From the NCBI GenBank assembly GCA_958295645.1, contig OY282361.1, positions 1,454,501-1,518,500 on the forward strand: a DNA stretch of 64,000 bases. Direction: 5' to 3'. The DNA comes from Longimicrobiales bacterium. Lineage in GTDB: Bacteria; Gemmatimonadota; Gemmatimonadetes; Longimicrobiales; Gaopeijiaceae. The position numbers and the translations under genes are program-made. The notes below the pieces were generated by a model that was not told where the DNA came from, searched no databases, and was given only the letters and a program-made list of their open reading frames with translations. Below, piece after piece: positions 2,056 to 57,456 of the stretch (positions are counted from its first letter, which is position 1; every line of letters begins with the position of its first letter).

Positions 2056-2792
2056 CAGTCCGTCGATGGGATGCGCCTCCTCGGTGGGGCCGGGCTTGGC
2101 GCCGGAGAAACGACCTCTTCCCCGGCCTTGGCGAGGCGGGCCTTGGCGTCGCCGGACGCGGGCACGGCGACGGGCCCGGTTTCTTCCCCGCCTCTGGGCA
2201 ATCGCGCCACGGCCAAGACCAGTTCGGCCGCGAACTCCTCGGCAAGCAGGCGGTCGGCGCGCCTGATGCGGAGCACGAGCTTGGCCGGATGCTTGAGCTT
2301 GAGGCCGTGGCCCCCGGCGATCTCGTCGAACGCCACGAGGTCGGCCGCCGTGACCACCAGTCGCGGTCCCTTGAGGAAGCCCCACCGGCTGCGAGGCACG
2401 GCGGCGCCCGCCACGTCTGCGAGAGGCACGGCAGTTTCGCGCACGGGCCCAATTTCGTCCTTCGCGGTCCAGGAAGCGCGCTCAAGCGACTCGGTGCGGA
2501 CCGCCAGCCGCCACTGGATCACCAAGCGCTCAAGCTCCAGGCGGAGCAGGCCGTGAGCGGTCTCCCTCTTGGTCGTGTACGAGCCCGCGTCCCAGAGATC
2601 CGAGCTGCGCTTGAGGGTGAAGGGAACCGCGCAGACGGTGCGACCGGGACTCGCCAGCTCCCCGCGGCCGACCTGCCCCCGGGCGTCCCTCGAAGCCCAT
2701 TCCGGCGAACCGCCATCGCCCGCCTGCGAACGTACCGCGCCAACGGCGTCATTCGGTGTCGCCATGCCGTAATCTAGCTTCGCGTCGCTCAT
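2055..2792 (-). CDS. Uncharacterised protein coupled to the AGCS symporter
   Basis: About 245 residues starting MSDAKLDYG; longer (2831) and shorter (2765) starts are possible. It is cytoplasmic in appearance, with no signal peptide or membrane span. The middle (roughly residues 75-195) alternates short strands such as SDLWDAGSYTT, WGFLKGPRLVVTAADL and KHPAKLVLRIRRADRL, a pattern like a beta-rich PH-type fold. The C-terminus is rich in Ala, Pro and Arg. Its stop overlaps the symporter start, so the two form an operon; a role in transporter function or regulation is only inferred. I do not recognise the family. Confidence 0.7.
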   Translation of the reverse strand: MSDAKLDYGMATPNDAVGAVRSQAGDGGSPEWASRDARGQVGRGELASPGRTVCAVPFTLKRSSDLWDAGSYTTKRETAHGLLRLELERLVIQWRLAVRTESLERASWTAKDEIGPVRETAVPLADVAGAAVPRSRWGFLKGPRLVVTAADLVAFDEIAGGHGLKLKHPAKLVLRIRRADRLLAEEFAAELVLAVARLPRGGEETGPVAVPASGDAKARLAKAGEEVVSPAPSPAPPRRRIPSTD

Positions 2793-2818
2793 CGGTTGAT
2801 GTTCGAACAGGATATGCA

Positions 2819-4021
2819 ATGACCATGGCAACTTTCTATCACGAAGGAGGCTTTCCGCCGGAGGAGCGCCTCGACTGGCCTGCGATTATTCCGCTGATCG
2901 GCCCGGCGGCGGCAGCGGTTGCGCGGTACGACGCGATGCTGGCCAGCATTCCCAACCCGCGAGTACTGCTTTCTCTCTTGACGACGCAGGAGGCGGTTCT
3001 TTCCTCTCGCATCGAAGGGATCGAAGCCACGACGAGCGAAGTCCTGGAGTTCGAGGCTGGAGGAGACGCGGAGTCCCTGGAGCGCAGAGCCGACATCGGC
3101 GAAGTGCTCAACTATCGCCGGGCGATGCGGCGAGCGGAACGGATGCTTCAGGAGCTGCCGCTTTGTCAGCGGGTCGTTCGCGAGGCGCACCGCGTGTTGC
3201 TTTCTGGAGTGCGGGGAGAGGGAAAATCGCCGGGCGAGTATCGGCGCGTCCCCAATTGGATCGGCCCACCTGGATGCGCGGTGGAGGAGGCGACGTTCGT
3301 GCCGATCGGTGCGGCGAAGCTGCCGACAGCCATGAGCGGGTGGGAGCGTTACATCCAAGGCGACGCGCCCGATCGTTTGGTGCAACTCGCCGTGCTTCAC
3401 GCCGAGTTCGAGGCCCTGCACCCGTTCTTGGACGGCAACGGCCGCCTCGGCAGGATGCTGGCGCCGCTGTTTCTTTCCCAGTGCGGGCTGATCAGCGAGC
3501 CCATGTTCTACATCAGCGCCTACTTCGAGACTCGCCGGGCCGCCTACTACGAAGGGCTGCTCGCCGTCTCGCGCGACGACGACTGGACCGGGTGGTGTCG
3601 ATTCTTCTTGGAGGCAGTGCGAGTCCAGGCCGAGGAGAGCCTTGCAAGAGCAAGGGGCATTCTCGATCTCTACGAGGACATGAAGGGGCGGGTCGCGGAT
3701 GTTACCCGCTCACAGTACGCCATTCACACGCTTGACTGTATCTTCGAGCACCAAGTATTCAACAGCGCGAGCTTCGCTGCGGATGCCGGAATCCCAGCCC
3801 GTACTGCGCGGCGGCTCCTGGCCAAGCTGGTCGAGCATGACGTTCTGCGCGTGCTCCGGCCGTCCAGCGGTCGCCGAGGGGCCATTCTGATGTTCCCCGA
3901 TCTCTTGAATGTCGCCGAGGGAGAAGGATGTGTTTTGACGGTCACCGGTGTCCCTCAAGCCGATTTGACGGACATATTTTCGGTCTTGTGGCCGCCAAAC
4001 CGTCGTGGCGGTCACCGGTGA
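2819..4021 (+). CDS. Fic family protein (AMP-transferase) with N-terminal inhibitory motif and C-terminal winged helix
   Basis: About 400 residues. A Fic_N-type domain (residues ~1-100) contains SSRIEG, which fits the (S/T)xxxE(G/N) inhibitory helix of class II Fic proteins. The catalytic core holds HPFLDGNGRLGR near residue 202, the full HxFx(D/E)GNGRxxR motif, so transfer of AMP from ATP to a protein hydroxyl is expected. A C-terminal region (ASFAADAGIPARTARRLLAKLVEHDVL) looks like a winged-helix domain. Start is at 2819 or 2825; an upstream in-frame start at 2756 would overlap the divergent gene. The last 30 residues (GCVLTVTGVPQADL) may be a read-through tail. Such proteins often act as self-regulated toxins or defence factors. 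Confidence 0.9.
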   Translation: MTMATFYHEGGFPPEERLDWPAIIPLIGPAAAAVARYDAMLASIPNPRVLLSLLTTQEAVLSSRIEGIEATTSEVLEFEAGGDAESLERRADIGEVLNYRRAMRRAERMLQELPLCQRVVREAHRVLLSGVRGEGKSPGEYRRVPNWIGPPGCAVEEATFVPIGAAKLPTAMSGWERYIQGDAPDRLVQLAVLHAEFEALHPFLDGNGRLGRMLAPLFLSQCGLISEPMFYISAYFETRRAAYYEGLLAVSRDDDWTGWCRFFLEAVRVQAEESLARARGILDLYEDMKGRVADVTRSQYAIHTLDCIFEHQVFNSASFAADAGIPARTARRLLAKLVEHDVLRVLRPSSGRRGAILMFPDLLNVAEGEGCVLTVTGVPQADLTDIFSVLWPPNRRGGHR

Positions 4022-5296: not shown

Positions 5297-6541
5297 GTGG
5301 AACTCCGCAAGCTCGGCATCAAGCGGTACAAGGGCTACACGCAAAGGGCAGAGGTGCAACTTGCTCCTCTGACAATCCTTGTGGGGCCCAACAATTCGGG
5401 CAAGACCGCGCTCGCTCAGGCGATCCAGTTGTTGGCCGGTGGCTTGGCCCCATCAGGGCCGGATGCGTCAGAACCGCTTCCGCTCGAGTCCGGTGGAATC
5501 CGGCACGGCGAGACGTTCGAAGACCTGGTGACTGGGCGCCCCGTGCACGGGCGGCTACAGATGTCCGCCAGCCTGGTGGACGACACGGGCGAGACGTCCC
5601 TGTCCGCCACCATTCGGAACGTAATGACGCCGAACCGGCCCTCTGCCCGCCAGATTGCCGAATGGCGTCTCGTCAGCGGCGGTAACAAAATCGTCGCGCA
5701 ACGACAGGGCTTCGACGACCGAACCGATTATCGCATCTCTGTTTCCGGATCCGCGCCACAACCCCGGCAGTTCGACCGGCAGCTCGATTGGCGAGGGTTG
5801 CTCCCGCTGCAGCCGGGCAACCTTGCGGACTGGGCCGAGGCGCGAGTCGACGCGCTCCGGAACTGGGCTTCCGGCGTCCGGCATTTGCGGTGCCCACGCA
5901 GCCTCCTTGCATCGCCTTTCGTCACTCCGGAAAACTCACCGATGGCCCTTGGACCGAACGGGCAGCAGGCCCCGCTGGCACTCGCAGCGGACCACAAGTT
6001 GCGGGAATCCGTGCGGAAGTGGTACCGCGACGCTTTCGGGGAGACCATCGACATTGCAGCGCAGGGAAGCTATTCCGAACTGGTCGCCGGATCTCCGGCA
6101 CGCGACACCAACGTGCGCCTCGTGCAATCCGGCCGCGGGCTGTCGCATGTTCTCCCGGTCGTGGTCATGGCGCTGACCGCCGCCGCGGCCGGTCCAGGCG
6201 TCGACGTCATCGAGCATCCCGAAGCCGAACTCCATCCCGCTGCTCATGCCGAAGTCGCGGAGTTGTTGCTCGCCAACCTCCGCGGCCCGATTCGGCCCAT
6301 GGTCGTGGAAACGCATTCCGAAATGATGCTTCTACGTGCGAGGCGCTGGATCGCGGAGGGGCGGTTGCCGGCCGGAAACGTCCTCGTTTACTGGACTCAT
6401 GCGGAACCGGGAAGCGGATCGGTTCTGCGAAAGATCGCAATCGACGAGCGGGGCGAAATGGATTCCTGGCCAGCCGGCGTTTTCATCGAGGACTATGAAG
6501 AAATCCTGGCGATCCGGCGCGCCGCCCGGACGAGAGGATAA
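5297..6541 (+). CDS. AAA-family ATPase (DUF3696-type ending), first gene of a three-gene defence-like operon
   Basis: A 414-residue SMC/OLD-like ATPase. The N-terminus [20 protein letters not shown] leads into the Walker A motif GPNNSGKT (residues ~36-43). Near the end come [17 protein letters not shown] (Walker B/D-loop with the ABC-ATPase EPE variant) and [15 protein letters not shown] (switch His), followed by [17 protein letters not shown], which recalls the DUF3696 ending of RecF/OLD-like defence ATPases. The start is GTG at 5297, with a TANNNT box (TACGGT, 5284-5289) seven bases upstream. Six bases separate it from the next gene. Function in phage defence is inferred from architecture. 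Confidence 0.85.
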
Positions 6542-6547
6542 GGGCGC

Positions 6548-7510
6548 GTGCGCATCGAAATCGACCCGAGCGCAGCGAACGATCCGGATGCCCACCCGTG
6601 GCTGGATCGGATTCTGCGCAAGATCGAGGATGGTTGGCACGTGTGGGAGATGGCCGATCCACCGGATCCCGGTGAAATGGAAGCCACGACGTGGATTCAT
6701 GACCGCGATCGTCAAGGCGCTTGGGTCCGCGAACTGCTCGTCGCATCGGTTCAGCGCAACGCTTGGACCCTGGCTCCGCACGGAAGGTCCTTACGGGTGA
6801 CGGCCCGCCCGCGCAACCCGGAAGAACTCACGCCCGAAAACGCTTCCCGACTCGCTGACGAACCGCTCTGGATTCTGGTCGAGAGCCGGTTCAGTGACGG
6901 ACCGTTTGTCGAATACGTCGTGAGGGAACTCGACGAGTCCCTTCGCATTCTGTGGGATCGGCCGGGACGTCCCATCCGAATCGACAGTGTCGGCGGCAAG
7001 GGAGAGATGCCAAAGGAGGTCGAGCACCGGACATCCGGCAATCCGTACCGCCCCCGGCTCGTCGCCATGATCGACAGCGACCGGAAATCGCCGGATGCCA
7101 ATCCCAGTCGGGACGCTCAAAAATTGCTTCGTGCCTGTGATAAACCGGATCTGCCCTGCTGGATCCTCGCCAAACGGGAGGCCGAGAACTACCTGCCCCG
7201 CGTACTCCTCCTTGCGCGACAAGACGTAGGGAAGGACCATGAACGACGATGCGATGCGTGGGGCAGGCTCAACGATGATCAAAAGAACTTCTTCGACATG
7301 AAGCGCGGCCTGCGGAACGCCCTCTCCGAGGTCGAGCAGGAATTGTTCGGTGGACTTTCATCGGCCGACCAAGAGGTTCTTGTCGACGGGTTCGGCCCGA
7401 ACGTGCACGAGTGCTGGACCCTCTGGAACGTATCGGCGAAGAAGGAACTGATCGCCCGCGGACAAGGTGACCTTGAACGCGGACTCGAACTGATTCGAAG
7501 GGAAGTCTGA
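6548..7510 (+). CDS. TOPRIM/DUF4435-like protein, second gene of the ATPase-TOPRIM-DUF262 operon
   Basis: A 320-residue soluble protein with a GTG start. The N-terminal ~95 residues are strand-rich and unassigned. From about residue 98, LWILVESRFSDGPFVEYVVRE fits the first TOPRIM strand and catalytic Glu. RLVAMIDSDRKS near residue 172 supplies a D-x-D, and ILAKREAENYLP near residue 210 resembles the xIENYL motif that follows the TOPRIM core in DUF4435 (AriB-like) nucleases. The C-terminus is helical. It sits six bases after an AAA ATPase and one base before a DUF262 gene, matching the ATPase-effector logic of PARIS-type modules. The TOPRIM call is by eye. Confidence 0.6.
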   Translation: MRIEIDPSAANDPDAHPWLDRILRKIEDGWHVWEMADPPDPGEMEATTWIHDRDRQGAWVRELLVASVQRNAWTLAPHGRSLRVTARPRNPEELTPENASRLADEPLWILVESRFSDGPFVEYVVRELDESLRILWDRPGRPIRIDSVGGKGEMPKEVEHRTSGNPYRPRLVAMIDSDRKSPDANPSRDAQKLLRACDKPDLPCWILAKREAENYLPRVLLLARQDVGKDHERRCDAWGRLNDDQKNFFDMKRGLRNALSEVEQELFGGLSSADQEVLVDGFGPNVHECWTLWNVSAKKELIARGQGDLERGLELIRREV

Positions 7511-7511
7511 G

Positions 7512-9233
7512 ATGCCCGACGGCAGCCGCAACCACACTGAAGTCGTCCCCGAAGTCGTATTTCTCGGCAAACTCGTCGAACGGATTGCGGCTGGCAAAAT
7601 TCGCGTGCCGAGGTTTCAACGCGCTTTCGTGTGGAGGCAGACGGACCTGCACGCGTTGCTCGACAGCATTCTGCGCGGATTTCCAATCGGTTCGATACTG
7701 GTTTGGGATACCGAGGAAAACATGGAATCCACCCGGCGCATCGGACCGATGGAAATCAGCCCGCGCCCAGACGGCATGATCGGCTACCTGCTTGACGGCC
7801 AGCAGCGCGTCTCCACGCTGGTAGGCACGCTGCGTTTGACCGATGGCATGAACGCAACCGTGGATCAAATCGATTGGCGCGTGTACTGCAACCTCGACAC
7901 CCGAGAATTTCACCGAGCATCGGCGGAGGATGTCGGTCCACAACATTTCCCGGTGCGGAGCTTGCTCAATACCGCAGGCTTTTTCGAAGCGTGCCGCCGG
8001 ATCCAATCAGAAGTCGACGATCTCGTCCAGAGCCAAAAATGGCTGGACGAGGCGGATCGTCTCGCAAACGCGTTTCGAAACTACCAGCTTCCGCTCATTC
8101 GTATCCGTGATGCCGACCTCGACAGCGCCGTGACGGTCTTTGCCCGTTTGAACCGCACCGGACGCAAGATGGCTGCCGACGAGATGGTGTCCGCGCTGAC
8201 CTACCAGAAGGGACAATTCCATCTTGCCCAGGAAATGAATAATTTCAAGGTCGAGCTGGCCCAAAAGAGATTCGGAAACCTCGATCGCGTCTTTCTCTTC
8301 AGGGCGGTGCTCGCAGCCCTCGACCGCGACATCTATGTGAAGGATTGGGCGGACATCATGGTCAAGCCGGAGGTTCGCGAGGCGCTTCCAAGCGCGTTCG
8401 AGTCCGCGACGGAAGGAATTCGACACGCACTGAAATTCCTCGCGAGACTCGGCGTTACGTCCGATCGGCTGCTACCCTATGGACTCCAGCTCGTGTTCCT
8501 CGGTGAATTCTTCCGGCAGTGTCCGCAGCCGACCGCAAATGTTGACGAGTTGCTGAACCGGTGGTTCTGGGTGACGTCGTTCGCCGGATGGTTCGGTGCA
8601 GTCCGTTTGACGCAAACCCGGCTCGCCTTGAGCGAGATCCGCAATCTTGCCACGGGCGTCGAGACCCGGTTCAGCGTCGTCAATCTTGAAACACAGGCTC
8701 AACCTTTTCCGGACCGCTTCGATGGCCGCAGTGCCCGCGTACGCACTTTTCTTCTCTATCTTGCGTCTCTCGAACCTAGTTCGCTTCGAGGCGAAGGCGC
8801 TCTTAATCCAGGCGAACTGCTTTCCAGGCCGGGAACCGGAGCGGTAGGACGCGTGTTCTCGAACCTGCCGCAACGTGCGGACCTGATTCGCAGTCCGGCG
8901 AACCGCATGTACGTGGACCGTGATTACGTTGGTCAAGCGTTCCGCGCCCTGACGGATTTACGGGACGACGTGTTGAAGGAAGTACTGCTGACACACGGAT
9001 TTCCGGTGGGGTCGATAGACCACTTGAGGAGCAACGACCGGACAGAATTGATCGAAGCGCGGCTGGAGGCCCTGATTAACGGCGAGCGGGACTTCATGGT
9101 GGAGCGGGGTGTAGTGCCGCCACAGGAGCGGACAGCGGGAACCATTGCCGACAGCGACGCTTCCGACGAGGAGTACGTCGATATCGACTACGGGGAAGCT
9201 GATGCGGAGGACGAAGAGACCCCGATATCTTAA
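7512..9233 (+). CDS. DUF262 domain protein (GmrS/BrxU-type N-terminal domain)
   Basis: A 573-residue protein. The N-terminal domain has the DUF262 signature: IRVPRFQRAFVWRQTDLHALLDS, GFPIGSILVWDT, and the nucleotide-binding DGQQR motif (LLDGQQRVSTLVGTLR, residues ~95-110). Helical middle sections follow (DADLDSAVTVFARLNRTGRK is also typical). No clear HNH of the DUF1524 type is visible; the tail TELIEARLEALINGERDFM matches the usual end of standalone DUF262 proteins and is followed by an acidic run (DEEYVDIDYGEADAEDEE). DUF262 proteins such as GmrSD, SspE and BrxU restrict modified or unmodified phage DNA using nucleotide hydrolysis. It is the last gene of the operon. Confidence 0.85.
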   Translation: MPDGSRNHTEVVPEVVFLGKLVERIAAGKIRVPRFQRAFVWRQTDLHALLDSILRGFPIGSILVWDTEENMESTRRIGPMEISPRPDGMIGYLLDGQQRVSTLVGTLRLTDGMNATVDQIDWRVYCNLDTREFHRASAEDVGPQHFPVRSLLNTAGFFEACRRIQSEVDDLVQSQKWLDEADRLANAFRNYQLPLIRIRDADLDSAVTVFARLNRTGRKMAADEMVSALTYQKGQFHLAQEMNNFKVELAQKRFGNLDRVFLFRAVLAALDRDIYVKDWADIMVKPEVREALPSAFESATEGIRHALKFLARLGVTSDRLLPYGLQLVFLGEFFRQCPQPTANVDELLNRWFWVTSFAGWFGAVRLTQTRLALSEIRNLATGVETRFSVVNLETQAQPFPDRFDGRSARVRTFLLYLASLEPSSLRGEGALNPGELLSRPGTGAVGRVFSNLPQRADLIRSPANRMYVDRDYVGQAFRALTDLRDDVLKEVLLTHGFPVGSIDHLRSNDRTELIEARLEALINGERDFMVERGVVPPQERTAGTIADSDASDEEYVDIDYGEADAEDEETPIS

Positions 9234-51178: not shown

Positions 51179-51292
51179 CTAGTTCCGGGTCTTGCCCGAT
51201 TCCCTTCGGATGGCGGTGCGAACCACGATCGCGAATCCGCCCCAGACGAACGTCATGACGGCAATCATCGTGATCCAGGCGGTGGTGGTCAT
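51179..51292 (-). CDS. MetS-like small subunit of an NSS transporter
   Basis: A 37-residue protein: [20 protein letters not shown], one membrane helix, then a basic tail. Length, the N-terminal T/S, the W-G-G motif in the helix and the basic end match the MetS family, small partners that NSS-type methionine/alanine importers need. The large NSS subunit lies 4.7 kb upstream at 55999-57456 rather than adjacent. It is 28 bases before carB. Confidence 0.7.
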
Positions 51293-51425: not shown

Positions 51426-53660
51426 TCAGGTCCATGTTGCCTCGACGTAGTCCACAACCTCCCTCGCCGTGAGTTCGCGGGTCGCCGGACCCGCGCGCAC
51501 AAAGAAGCGCTCCGCGCGTCCGTCCTTGACGTAGACCGGCCGCCTCGCCTTCGAACAACGAACGACCAAGACGCGAACGCCCTCGTAGTCCTCGAAGTGC
51601 GGTCGCACCTGCGCCATGGTCTCCACCCCCATTCGTTGGCTGACTATGTTGACCAAGTGAAGGCTCATCTTGTCTTCGCTGCCAAACCCGTCCTCGCCGA
51701 TGCCCACGGGCGTCCCGTCGTCGGCAACCCCCACGAACAGCGTACCCCCGTTCGTGTTCAGAAACGCCGCCAACGTCTTCAGGACGCCTAGCTCCATTCG
51801 GCCGTCCTTGGCTCCGGTATGCAAATTGATGCGGAGCGTCGACTTGAACTCCCGATCGCCCGACTCTCCGGAGGAGATCTCCATGGTCCAGTCGATGTCG
51901 TGATCGTCTTCAGCTCCTACGTCGTCGGCCAGTCGATCGTAGCCTTCTTTCGTGATCTTTGCGATCAGGTCGCGCCGGTGCGCGAGAAACTTCCGGTACT
52001 CCATGCGCTCCCATCCGTCCGGAAGCGCGTGGAAGCGGTACATTCGGCCGATCTCTTCCGCACTGAAACGCTCTTCCAAGTTCGGCACGTAGGCCTCGGG
52101 CGCTTTGTCTCCGACTCGCGCATTATCTGAACGATCCACATACGCGAAATTGGCATTTTGATTAGTATTCTTGGCGCCGCCAAGGCGAATTCTTTCCAAA
52201 TGTCTCCTGGGAAACAGATGATGCTTCTCGACCTCCCGACCGCTGCTCACGCTAGGATCCAGCGCGTCAGCCATTGGCGTGTTGGAATACAGCACTGGAG
52301 CTTCAAGCAAGACTAGGGCCGCGTTGTATGCCAGAAACGAAGGACTCCGAGGCGCGGCCGTAGCCAGGGCGTTGGGCAACGTCGTCTTCCAGAAGTCTCC
52401 GGTCAACGCAGTCCTGCACACCTTCTTGAGCTCATGGACGAAGCCGTCCGCGTCGCGCACGTCGCGCAACCTACCCAAGTCGAATTCCATGGCCCCTTCA
52501 GGAGAGCCCGTGAAGCGGCCCGTCGCCGCAGACATGAAGAACCATTGTGCAATCGCGCGTCGAAGTGCAACGGCGTCCACTCCATATTCCGTTCGGCCAA
52601 TCAAGTACAGAGTGTACGAGAACAGCAGATTGGTCTGCGAACTGATCATCTTGCCGTTGCGAAAGCCCGCCAACCTGACGCAAATCATGAAATCGTGCCA
52701 ATGACGCATATTCAACGTTAGTTCCTGCGCACGTCTCAACTCCTCGAACTGCCGGTCGCGGTTCTCCTTGCTGAAGCCACCGGTTTCGACGTCCTTTCCG
52801 CGTAGAAGCGAATAGCAGTGCCGGAGTTGGGCCCGCCTGAAGCCCACGCCGATGGTAACCCGCAGCAACTGATCCGGCTTCGGCTCGATGAACCGATTGA
52901 AAGGCGATGCAGCCGCATCCTTGGCCGGGGTCTTGGCGTCCCGGCAAAATTGTTCCAAGTCCTTCCGGCCTTGGTCCCAAAACACCGACATCAACGTCAA
53001 GATGAAGTCCGCTTGCTTCAGCGAAGTTCCCTTGCTGTTGATGCGAACGAACACTTCGGCGATGTCTTCCTCCGTGACGCTGGCGGACAGCTCCAAGGCT
53101 TGGAAGGGGAAATTCTTCAATCCATAGAGCTTCTCAATTGCGAATAGGGCTCGCTTCTCCGTTTCTGGGTCGACATTGGATGGCAACGTCTCCTTGTAGT
53201 CGATCGATACTCTGACGATGCTGTTCGACCATATCGTCGAGATATCCCCGATGAAAGACTTGTTCTGGCGAATGGCGGCATTGGCGACGTCGAAGCGCTC
53301 TTCCATTGGATTGAAAGCGATCTGTATTGTCCTTTCTCTCCAGTTTCTGTCGACGATCGGCCTGCCCGTCATCACGGCGTAGAGCGACGTCAGTCGCTGT
53401 TGCCCGTCGACGATGACCTTCTCGGGTGTCTTGCGCTTTTCGTCTTGCCCGATAGTGCGATCATCCTTGATGCCGTGCCTCCAGAACAGAAGATGGCCCA
53501 CGGGATATCCGCGGTACATCGAATCCAAGAGGTCGCGCACCTTGGCGTTGGGCCACACGAACGGCCTTTGAATGTCCGGCAAACCTATGACGCCGAGTTC
53601 AATGTCGTTCAGCAAATGCCGCAACTCGTAGGGGATTGGCGTGAAGACCGTGTTGCTCAT
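51426..53660 (-). CDS. DUF262-HNH-AlbA_2 (Schlafen-type) fusion protein
   Basis: A 744-residue protein. The N-terminal DUF262 domain has ELGVIGLPDIQRPFVWPNAK, YPVGHLLFWRHG and VIVDGQQRLTSLYAV (DGQQR). Residues ~430-530 carry an HNH/DUF1524-like nuclease motif (EKHHLFPRRHLERIR ... NQNANFAYVDRSDNARVGDK). The C-terminus is an AlbA_2/Schlafen domain (ESGDREFKSTLRINLHTG, TLAAFLNTNGGTLFVGVADD, FVRAGPATRELTAREVVDY). DUF262-HNH proteins restrict foreign DNA; AlbA_2 domains bind or cut nucleic acid. The ATG overlaps the stop of an HD-domain gene (ATGA). Confidence 0.88.
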   Translation of the reverse strand: MSNTVFTPIPYELRHLLNDIELGVIGLPDIQRPFVWPNAKVRDLLDSMYRGYPVGHLLFWRHGIKDDRTIGQDEKRKTPEKVIVDGQQRLTSLYAVMTGRPIVDRNWRERTIQIAFNPMEERFDVANAAIRQNKSFIGDISTIWSNSIVRVSIDYKETLPSNVDPETEKRALFAIEKLYGLKNFPFQALELSASVTEEDIAEVFVRINSKGTSLKQADFILTLMSVFWDQGRKDLEQFCRDAKTPAKDAAASPFNRFIEPKPDQLLRVTIGVGFRRAQLRHCYSLLRGKDVETGGFSKENRDRQFEELRRAQELTLNMRHWHDFMICVRLAGFRNGKMISSQTNLLFSYTLYLIGRTEYGVDAVALRRAIAQWFFMSAATGRFTGSPEGAMEFDLGRLRDVRDADGFVHELKKVCRTALTGDFWKTTLPNALATAAPRSPSFLAYNAALVLLEAPVLYSNTPMADALDPSVSSGREVEKHHLFPRRHLERIRLGGAKNTNQNANFAYVDRSDNARVGDKAPEAYVPNLEERFSAEEIGRMYRFHALPDGWERMEYRKFLAHRRDLIAKITKEGYDRLADDVGAEDDHDIDWTMEISSGESGDREFKSTLRINLHTGAKDGRMELGVLKTLAAFLNTNGGTLFVGVADDGTPVGIGEDGFGSEDKMSLHLVNIVSQRMGVETMAQVRPHFEDYEGVRVLVVRCSKARRPVYVKDGRAERFFVRAGPATRELTAREVVDYVEATWT

Positions 53661-54253
53661 GGCCGCTGCTGCTGCCCTCGCCGGGCGGCCAAGTCTTCCC
53701 CGCGCACTTCCAGCACGTCCGCCACGGTCCGCAGGCCGTCGATGACGTTCTGGACGTGCACGGCCCGGTCCAGGTCGATCAAGTCGAGGCCGCGCTGCAC
53801 GGCGTCGCGGTGAACACCGGCCGCGAACGCCTTGTCCTTCAGCTTCTTGACCACGGACTTGGGGCGAAGGTCGTCGATGCCGTTGGGGCGAACGAGGCAG
53901 CAGGCGTAGACGAGGCCGCAGAGCTCGTCGCAGGCGTAGAGGACCTTGTCCAGGGGAGTCTCGGGGACCACGTCGGAGCGGTCGGGATAGGCATGAGCGA
54001 GGATGGCGCGAACGACGGGTTCGGGATAGTCCAGCTCGCGAAGACGCGCCACGCCCGGGTGTGGATGCTCGTCGGGAAAGCGCTCCCAGTCGAGGTCGTG
54101 GAGGAGGCCGGCCAAGCCCCACGTCTCTTCGTCCTCTCCCTCGAGGCGGGCGTAGTGGCGGACGGCGGCTTCCACGGCGTACATGTGCTTGCGCAACGCC
54201 TCGCTCTCGACCCACTCCTCCAGAAGCGCAACGGCGTCGGATCGGCTGGGCAT
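53657..54253 (-). CDS. HD-domain phosphohydrolase
   Basis: A 198-residue protein with HD metal-binding residues in LRKHMYAVEAAVRHYARLEG, GLLHDLDWERFPDEHPH and RAILAHAYPD. It belongs to the small cytoplasmic HD hydrolases that act on nucleotides or other phosphates. Its stop overlaps the DUF262-AlbA_2 start, so the two are co-translated, which raises the possibility that it is part of a defence pair; equally it may be a housekeeping gene. Confidence 0.88.
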   Translation of the reverse strand: MPSRSDAVALLEEWVESEALRKHMYAVEAAVRHYARLEGEDEETWGLAGLLHDLDWERFPDEHPHPGVARLRELDYPEPVVRAILAHAYPDRSDVVPETPLDKVLYACDELCGLVYACCLVRPNGIDDLRPKSVVKKLKDKAFAAGVHRDAVQRGLDLIDLDRAVHVQNVIDGLRTVADVLEVRGEDLAARRGQQQRP

Positions 54254-55998: not shown

Positions 55999-57456
55999 TC
56001 AGCCGTCCCCGGCGGCTTGGGCGCGGCGGGCCAGCCATCGGTTGGCGGCGAAGAGCACGCAACCCACGATTGCGAACTGGATGACGACCGTCCCCACGTT
56101 GTAGCTCGACATCAGCTTCCACGTCTCCCCGAAGTCCTTGCCCCTCGAGGCCTCCCACAACCACCATCCCAGAAGCACGACCGCCTCCACCGCCACGAAC
56201 CGCATCGCCCAGTCCCACCAGCGCCCCACGCGCAGGTCGGAGTCCGGCGTGTCCACGAACGACTTGCGCCACTTGGTCACCCCGTACTTGAGCACCGCGA
56301 AGGCGAAGAAGAACCCCGACAGCATGAGGCCCACGCCCCAGACCCAGTCCTGGTTCTGGAAGATCCCGATCTTGAGCGCCGACGGAATGCCCAGCAGGAA
56401 GCCGACCGTCCCGACCGCCGCGATGGCGGGCTTCCGGGCCAGTCCCAGATCCATGAGCACGCGCACCGAGAGCTCGATCATGGCCACCAAGCTGGACCAC
56501 GCCGCGAAGACCAGCGCCAGGAAGAACAACGCCATGAAGAACTGGCCGCCCGGTATCTGCGCGAAGAGCTGGGGCACCCAGATGAAGGTCAGTCCTTCGT
56601 TGCCTGCGCCCACGATCTCGTTCGCGGCTTCCGGCATCACCGAGAAGATCGTGCAGAGCACCATGATGCCCGCCAGGAGCGACATGGAGTTGTTGCCGAA
56701 GCCGATCACGAAGGCGTTGAGGGACGTGTCCTCCTTGGAGCGCATGTAGATGGCGTAGGACAGCACCAAGCCCCAGCCCGCGCCCGTGTCCCATGCGTTT
56801 TGGGTCAGCGCTTCAATCCACACCTTGGCGTTGCCGAGCTCGGAGAAGTCGGGATTGAAGAGGAACGCGAGCCCGTCCGCGGCGCCCGGCATGGTGACGG
56901 CTTTGATCGCGAGCACCACGACCAGAATCACCAGCGACGGGATCAGGATCTTGGCCGCCTTCTCGATGCCCCGAACGCCCTTCGACACCACGAACAAGCC
57001 CATCGCCATGGCCAGCCCGTGAAAGAACACGGCCTGCGGCGTGGAGTTGAAGGCGTCCCAGAACTGCGCGGGCACGCTCGCCGGAGACGGAACCTCGCCG
57101 GTGAGCGTGGCGATGAAGAAGCGGATCGTCCAGCCCATGACGACCGTGTAGTAGAACAGGATTGCCGTGGCCACCCACGCCACCCAGGCGCCCATCCAGG
57201 CGAACTTGGGGCCGAGCATCTTGACGAACGACCCGACGGATCCCCGCCGCGTCGCCTTGGCCATCCCGAACTCCAAGACGAGAAGCGGGATGGACCACAG
57301 GAGCAGGAAGACGGCCCAAGCCACCAGGAACTCTCCGCCGCCGTTCGACGCCGCGACGCGCGGGAACCGCCAGATGTTTCCGGTGCCGATCGCCATGCCC
57401 AGCATGGCCACCAGCATCCCCCATCGGGAACTGAAGACTTGAGATCGGGTGGACAC
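55999..57456 (-). CDS. Sodium-dependent NSS-family amino-acid transporter
   Basis: A 485-residue LeuT-fold membrane protein with the NSS signature AIGTGNIWRFPRVAASNGGG in helix 1. Further helices include FLVAWAVFLLLWSIPLLVLE and the unwound helix 6 region (NAWDTGAGWGLVLSYAIYM). Members import amino acids with sodium. It starts with GTG after a clear RBS (CAGGAGT). MetS-like proteins partner such transporters, and one lies 4.7 kb downstream. Confidence 0.95.
   Translation of the reverse strand: MSTRSQVFSSRWGMLVAMLGMAIGTGNIWRFPRVAASNGGGEFLVAWAVFLLLWSIPLLVLEFGMAKATRRGSVGSFVKMLGPKFAWMGAWVAWVATAILFYYTVVMGWTIRFFIATLTGEVPSPASVPAQFWDAFNSTPQAVFFHGLAMAMGLFVVSKGVRGIEKAAKILIPSLVILVVVLAIKAVTMPGAADGLAFLFNPDFSELGNAKVWIEALTQNAWDTGAGWGLVLSYAIYMRSKEDTSLNAFVIGFGNNSMSLLAGIMVLCTIFSVMPEAANEIVGAGNEGLTFIWVPQLFAQIPGGQFFMALFFLALVFAAWSSLVAMIELSVRVLMDLGLARKPAIAAVGTVGFLLGIPSALKIGIFQNQDWVWGVGLMLSGFFFAFAVLKYGVTKWRKSFVDTPDSDLRVGRWWDWAMRFVAVEAVVLLGWWLWEASRGKDFGETWKLMSSYNVGTVVIQFAIVGCVLFAANRWLARRAQAAGDG

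What the first reader, a model, noticed from the sequence alone, without database searches (positions are those of the whole stretch)
51426..54253. HD hydrolase coupled to a DUF262-HNH-AlbA_2 fusion
The fusion joins three nucleic-acid-related modules in one polypeptide and starts inside the stop of an HD phosphohydrolase gene. DUF262-HNH proteins are restriction enzymes; an added AlbA_2 domain and an HD partner that may process nucleotides would be an unusual architecture. It interrupts a run of housekeeping genes (nth ... carB).
Basis: partly seen in the sequence, partly recalled or inferred. Interest (0 to 1): 0.6.

Follow-up and report, generated by a model that had tools for sequence, protein, structure and literature searches.

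The report
Roaming restriction enzyme with Schlafen-like tail
A single gene for a probable phage-fighting DNA-cutting enzyme, carrying an extra nuclease-like tail related to the antiviral Schlafen proteins, has landed by chance among household genes here; the same enzyme is spread across many unrelated bacteria and archaea, often inside known restriction systems, but its neighbour the HD gene is just an ordinary resident.

Summary
A 744-aa protein (51426-53660, minus strand) carries DUF262/GmrSD_N, an HNH (HHLFP) site that no library names, and SLFN_AlbA_2. It starts in the ATGA overlap with an HD gene. The HD gene is a single-copy core gene (85 of 96 family genomes). It sits beside nth in 24 of 29 fetched HD loci, and beside both nth and carB in 12 of 29; none of these 29 loci has the fusion. 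The closest family relative of the fusion (60%) lies 448 kb from its HD gene. One weak HD match occurs near 80 fusion homologues. The fusion itself is real and spread widely: the 80 best public loci (46-61% identity, about 20 phyla, archaea included) keep all three modules, one contig-truncated copy aside. In the 54 aligned copies the DxQQR, HH, Asn and Schlafen ExxxxExK residues never vary. The gene is embedded in or near type I R-M genes in 17 of 80 loci, and next to MmeI-type enzymes in others. Most likely it is a mobile, stand-alone GmrSD-type restriction nuclease with a conserved Schlafen-type second module. The fusion was not found in the papers searched. New variant of a known kind; activity untested.

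The parts
51426..53660 (-). DUF262-HNH-AlbA_2 fusion gene, 744 aa (start ATG 53660)
   Evidence: N-terminus MSxTVF aligns with family start
52998..53621 (-). DUF262/GmrSD_N domain (residues 14-221), ParB/Srx-like nucleotide-binding and sensor module
   Evidence: Pfam PF03235 E=2e-30; BrxU match
53394..53408 (-). DGQQR motif (residues 85-89)
   Evidence: D85, Q87, Q88, R89 54/54
52098..52235 (-). HNH / His-Me finger (residues about 476-521), ExHHLFP...NxxAN...N
   Evidence: E478, H480, H481, N504 54/54, N513 53/54; beta-beta-alpha in the model
51471..51866 (-). SLFN_AlbA_2 domain (residues 599-730)
   Evidence: Pfam PF04326 E=2.8e-16; Schlafen matches
51843..51866 (-). ExxxxExK motif (E599, E604, K606), the Schlafen RNase core
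   Evidence: 54/54 invariant; motif defined in PMC12215978
53657..54253 (-). HD-domain hydrolase, core gene; chance neighbour, not part of the system
   Evidence: 85/96 family genomes, beside nth in 24/29 loci
51179..51292 (-). 37-aa MetS-like NSS transporter small subunit; right-hand edge of the empty site
   Evidence: NF033493 25.5 bits over cut-off 25; conserved between HD and carB

Best explanation
A stand-alone, horizontally moving restriction nuclease of the GmrSD superfamily. Inferred mechanism, in steps. (1) The N-terminal DUF262 domain binds a nucleotide (DGQQR) and senses foreign, probably modified, DNA. (2) Sensing licenses the HNH/His-Me finger to cut that DNA. (3) The C-terminal Schlafen AlbA_2 domain, which keeps the ExxxxExK metal site, acts as a second nucleic-acid module, more likely a nuclease than only a binder, adding cleavage of RNA or DNA. 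In this genome the gene was inserted between an HD hydrolase gene and the metS-like/carB genes and is read behind the HD gene through an ATGA overlap. The HD protein takes no part. Shown: architecture, residue conservation, spread, insertion site, restriction-operon context. Inferred: every biochemical activity and the target.
For: Domains. Catalytic-type residues of all three modules invariant in 54 aligned homologues. Foldseek best hits BrxU 1.1e-13 and SspE 2.1e-4, then AlbA_2 and Schlafen structures. hsdM-hsdS-fusion-hsdR order in e.g. L065 and L074, with type I genes confirmed by Pfam. MmeI-type IIG neighbours in L128 and L139. Phyla interleaved on the tree. GC 57.7% against 68.7% for the window. 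Empty site in relatives.
Against: No Pfam or NCBIfam HNH call. No activity data. PADLOC HEC-05 matches only short stretches. Most copies (63 of 80) have no type I gene within 3 kb, though many contigs are short. ExxxxExK lies in a domain family whose other members include nucleic-acid binders not shown to be nucleases. Phylum mixing can also come from mis-binned contigs, and the tool warns that more than one change is no proof of transfer.
Confidence: 0.65

Rival explanations
1. Same restriction enzyme, but AlbA_2 is only a nucleic-acid-binding or dimerising module; all cutting is done by the HNH.
For: Relatives of 36-47% identity without AlbA_2 (L140, L141, Euzebya plasmid, phage record MT836124) match only residues up to about 577-585, and L140 and L141 are complete ORFs of 586-587 aa. 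The AlbA_2-like domain of SAMD9 is a DNA-binding structure (7ksp).
Against: E599, E604 and K606 unchanged in 54/54 copies down to about 43% overall identity, more than binding alone would seem to need.
Confidence: 0.4
2. HD protein and fusion form a two-gene defence system (nucleotide processing plus nuclease).
For: 4-bp ATGA overlap, same strand.
Against: HD is a core gene beside nth without the fusion; unlinked in G025; one weak HD match among 80 fusion loci. The fusion makes the same -4 overlap with the ORF upstream in six other loci, which are in the HsdS cluster.
Confidence: 0.03
3. The fusion is an accessory of type I restriction-modification complexes rather than an independent enzyme.
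For: Inside hsdM-hsdS-hsdR operons in several loci.
Against: In this genome the nearest HSDR_N hits lie more than 1 Mb away; many copies have no hsd gene nearby. By analogy, T1RM-embedded TgvAB protects when expressed without the type I genes (PMC11411939).
Confidence: 0.12
4. Decayed or non-functional insert.
For: Lower GC than the surroundings.
Against: Full-length frame, all conserved residues present.
Confidence: 0.03

Closest known systems
BrxU (GmrSD-family type IV restriction enzyme, PDB 7p9k)
   Same: DUF262 with DGQQR plus C-terminal His-Me/HNH; best sequence and fold match
   Different: No AlbA_2 domain; described with DUF1524 (PMC8565348), which no profile detects here
TgvAB of Vibrio (type I-embedded GmrSD-like, PMC11411939)
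   Same: DUF262/HNH genes embedded in a type I R-M operon, as many homologues here
   Different: Two proteins, no AlbA_2; here one polypeptide, and an orphan in the window genome
SspE (phosphorothioate-sensing DUF262-HNH, PDB 6jiv)
   Same: DUF262-HNH; weaker fold match
   Different: Works with Ssp modification genes (own knowledge); none seen beside the fusion here
Schlafen RNases (SLFN11/13/14)
   Same: AlbA_2 domain with ExxxxExK
   Different: Those have a two-lobed Schlafen core and no DUF262-HNH; the conserved arginine (R133 in SLFN14) has no tested counterpart
HEC-05 (PADLOC, Hma-embedded candidate; = BrxU according to PMC11411939)
   Same: Best PADLOC hit, N-terminal part
   Different: Short stretches only; no AlbA_2

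Membership tests
GmrSD family (type IV restriction) | N-terminal DUF262/GmrSD_N | tested here: met
   PF03235 106.9 bits, cut-off 33.2
GmrSD family (type IV restriction) | QR, DGQQR and FxxxN motifs | tested here: met
   Q31/R32, D85/Q87/Q88/R89, F204...N208 invariant in A2
GmrSD family (type IV restriction) | C-terminal DUF1524 (PF07510) by profile | tested here: not met
   no Pfam hit at E<=1; an HNH-like site is present instead
GmrSD family (type IV restriction) | His-Me finger: His at end of strand 1, Asn in loop, Asn in helix | tested here: met
   H480/H481, N504, N513; E477-481, E505-509, H510-516 in the model
GmrSD family (type IV restriction) | cleaves modified DNA only, nucleotide dependent | not testable with these tools
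   needs biochemistry
Schlafen RNase | AlbA_2 fold with ExxxxExK | tested here: met
   PF04326 over cut-off; 54/54; SLFN14 alignment to E206/E211/K213
Schlafen RNase | two-lobed core with conserved Arg | tested here: inconclusive
   single AlbA_2 only; R722 is invariant but its place in the site was not examined
Schlafen RNase | RNA cleavage | not testable with these tools
   needs biochemistry
HD-fusion two-gene system | conserved linkage of HD and fusion | tested here: not met

The most novel reading that the evidence does not exclude
A one-protein, two-effector immune enzyme: a nucleotide-driven DUF262 sensor switches on both an HNH DNase against phage DNA and a Schlafen-type RNase against RNA (e.g. 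tRNA), so that restriction and translation shut-off are joined in one polypeptide that moves between phyla.
Probability: 0.3. Interest if true: 0.7.

Novelty: new variant of a known kind. Interest (0 to 1): 0.42.

Why it matters
GmrSD enzymes are known as modification-dependent DNases, and Schlafens as antiviral RNases. A conserved, widely transferred fusion of the two would be a direct prokaryotic link between restriction and RNA-based shut-off. It can be tested with one gene.

Tried and rejected
HD-fusion pair: rejected. Phage or plasmid carriage: no full-length copy among GenBank phage records, only distant ones (about 25% identity) on two plasmids, and 2 full-length in IMG/VR. Literature: no paper in the library holds both GmrSD and AlbA_2 or DUF262 and AAA_4. 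The only GmrSD+Schlafen and DUF262+Schlafen papers treat the two separately in the passages read. Machnicka 2015 lists DUF4268, DUF4357 and DNA_binding_1 as extra domains, not AlbA_2. [quoted passage not shown] The L054 ORF beside the G062 copy looked methylase-like to the eye but had no Pfam hit, so it is not used. The host organism of the window was not identified.

Full report
Observation. Two overlapping minus-strand genes are present as described: HD (53657-54253) and a 744-aa fusion (51426-53660) whose ATG overlaps the HD stop by ATGA. Pfam finds GmrSD_N/DUF262 and SLFN_AlbA_2 well over cut-off in the fusion and HD in the other. The HNH is unnamed by the libraries but shows as ExHHLFP...NQxAN...N.

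The HD gene is a bystander. In 96 genomes of the same family it is found in 85 (56 of 59 good ones), nearly always single copy, 61-90% identical over full-length matches. The fusion is full length in only 4. In 29 fetched HD loci of other genomes, nth lies beside HD on the same strand in 24, and nth and carB both in 12; the fusion is in none. In those 12 loci a spacer and a small ORF are all that the searches and reads show between HD and carB; in the window this ORF matches the MetS-like NSS transporter subunit. This is the empty site. In G025 the fusion (60%) lies at C2:1286621 and HD at C2:838366. Among 80 public fusion loci with up to 8 kb flanks, HD gave one weak hit (38%, L090).

The fusion is a widespread family. 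A scan of 84,980 species genomes gave 470 relatives; the best 80 kept are 46-61% identical over essentially the whole query, except L138, cut by its contig end. Three appear split by a frameshift or stop (L097, L103, L129). Hosts include archaea (Methanoculleus, Methanohalophilus), CPR, Planctomycetota, Chloroflexota and Bacteroidota. A 54-row tree mixes phyla (31 changes for 20 groups, least possible 19); mis-binning may contribute. The gene has 57.7% GC against 68.7% for the window, GC3 0.74 against 0.85-0.93 in neighbours, fitting acquisition from elsewhere.

Context. Genes of the HsdR, HsdS or HsdM clusters lie within 3 kb in 17 of 80 loci, immediately adjacent in 10. Pfam confirms HsdM, HsdS and HsdR in L065 and HsdS/HsdR in L126. 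In six loci the fusion shares the same -4 ATGA overlap with the ORF upstream, which falls in the HsdS cluster, so the overlap with HD is how this gene often sits, not a sign of HD partnership. MmeI-type IIG enzymes lie beside the fusion in L128 and L139, with homologues near it in L091 and L133. Published GmrSD enzymes are likewise often inside type I loci (PMC11411939). In the window genome the fusion stands alone: the HSDR_N hits are more than 1 Mb away.

Residues and structure. Over 54 copies D85, Q87-R89, E478, H480, H481, N504, E599, E604, K606 and D647 are invariant. E599/E604/K606 align with E206/E211/K213 of SLFN14, whose mutation abolishes RNase activity (PMC12215978). The AlphaFold model (pLDDT 85, pTM 0.68) matches BrxU best, then SspE, AlbA_2 proteins and Schlafens; whole-chain TM-scores are low (about 0.3), so relative domain placement is not to be trusted.

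Mechanism. By homology to BrxU and TgvAB, DUF262 senses modified DNA with nucleotide use and the His-Me finger cuts (reported for those in PMC8565348 and PMC11411939; inferred here). Relatives without AlbA_2 exist, so AlbA_2 can be seen as an added module. Its unbroken ExxxxExK favours catalysis over mere binding, but this is inference.

Membership. It works like a GmrSD enzyme; strict membership by DUF1524 profile is not met, while the His-Me geometry is. It carries a Schlafen domain but is not a Schlafen proper.

Noticed in passing
window 5297-9233 (+): Three-gene AAA_15 ATPase / unknown / DUF262 cluster matching all three parts of PADLOC candidate system PDC-M55 (A 1.5e-71, B 9.6e-34, C 5.3e-130), next to a methionine-synthase-like gene; a Fic-domain gene lies at 2756-4021.
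   Followed up: partly
window 51179-51292 (-): 37-aa MetS-like NSS transporter small subunit directly before carB, while the SLC6/NSS-type ORF lies at 55999-57456.
   Followed up: partly
L065:5763-6785, L059:2187-3770: Other genes inserted in the type I operons that hold the fusion: a YhcG PDDEXK nuclease (PADLOC PDC-S02) and a reverse transcriptase.
   Followed up: no
L071:10285-11733, L084:10230-11771: A second, separate AlbA_2 protein (AlbA_2 with HATPase_c_4 and a Fic-like C-terminus in L071) sits just downstream of the fusion.
   Followed up: no
G000 whole genome: Eight SLFN_AlbA_2 matches over cut-off in a 2.9 Mb genome.
   Followed up: no
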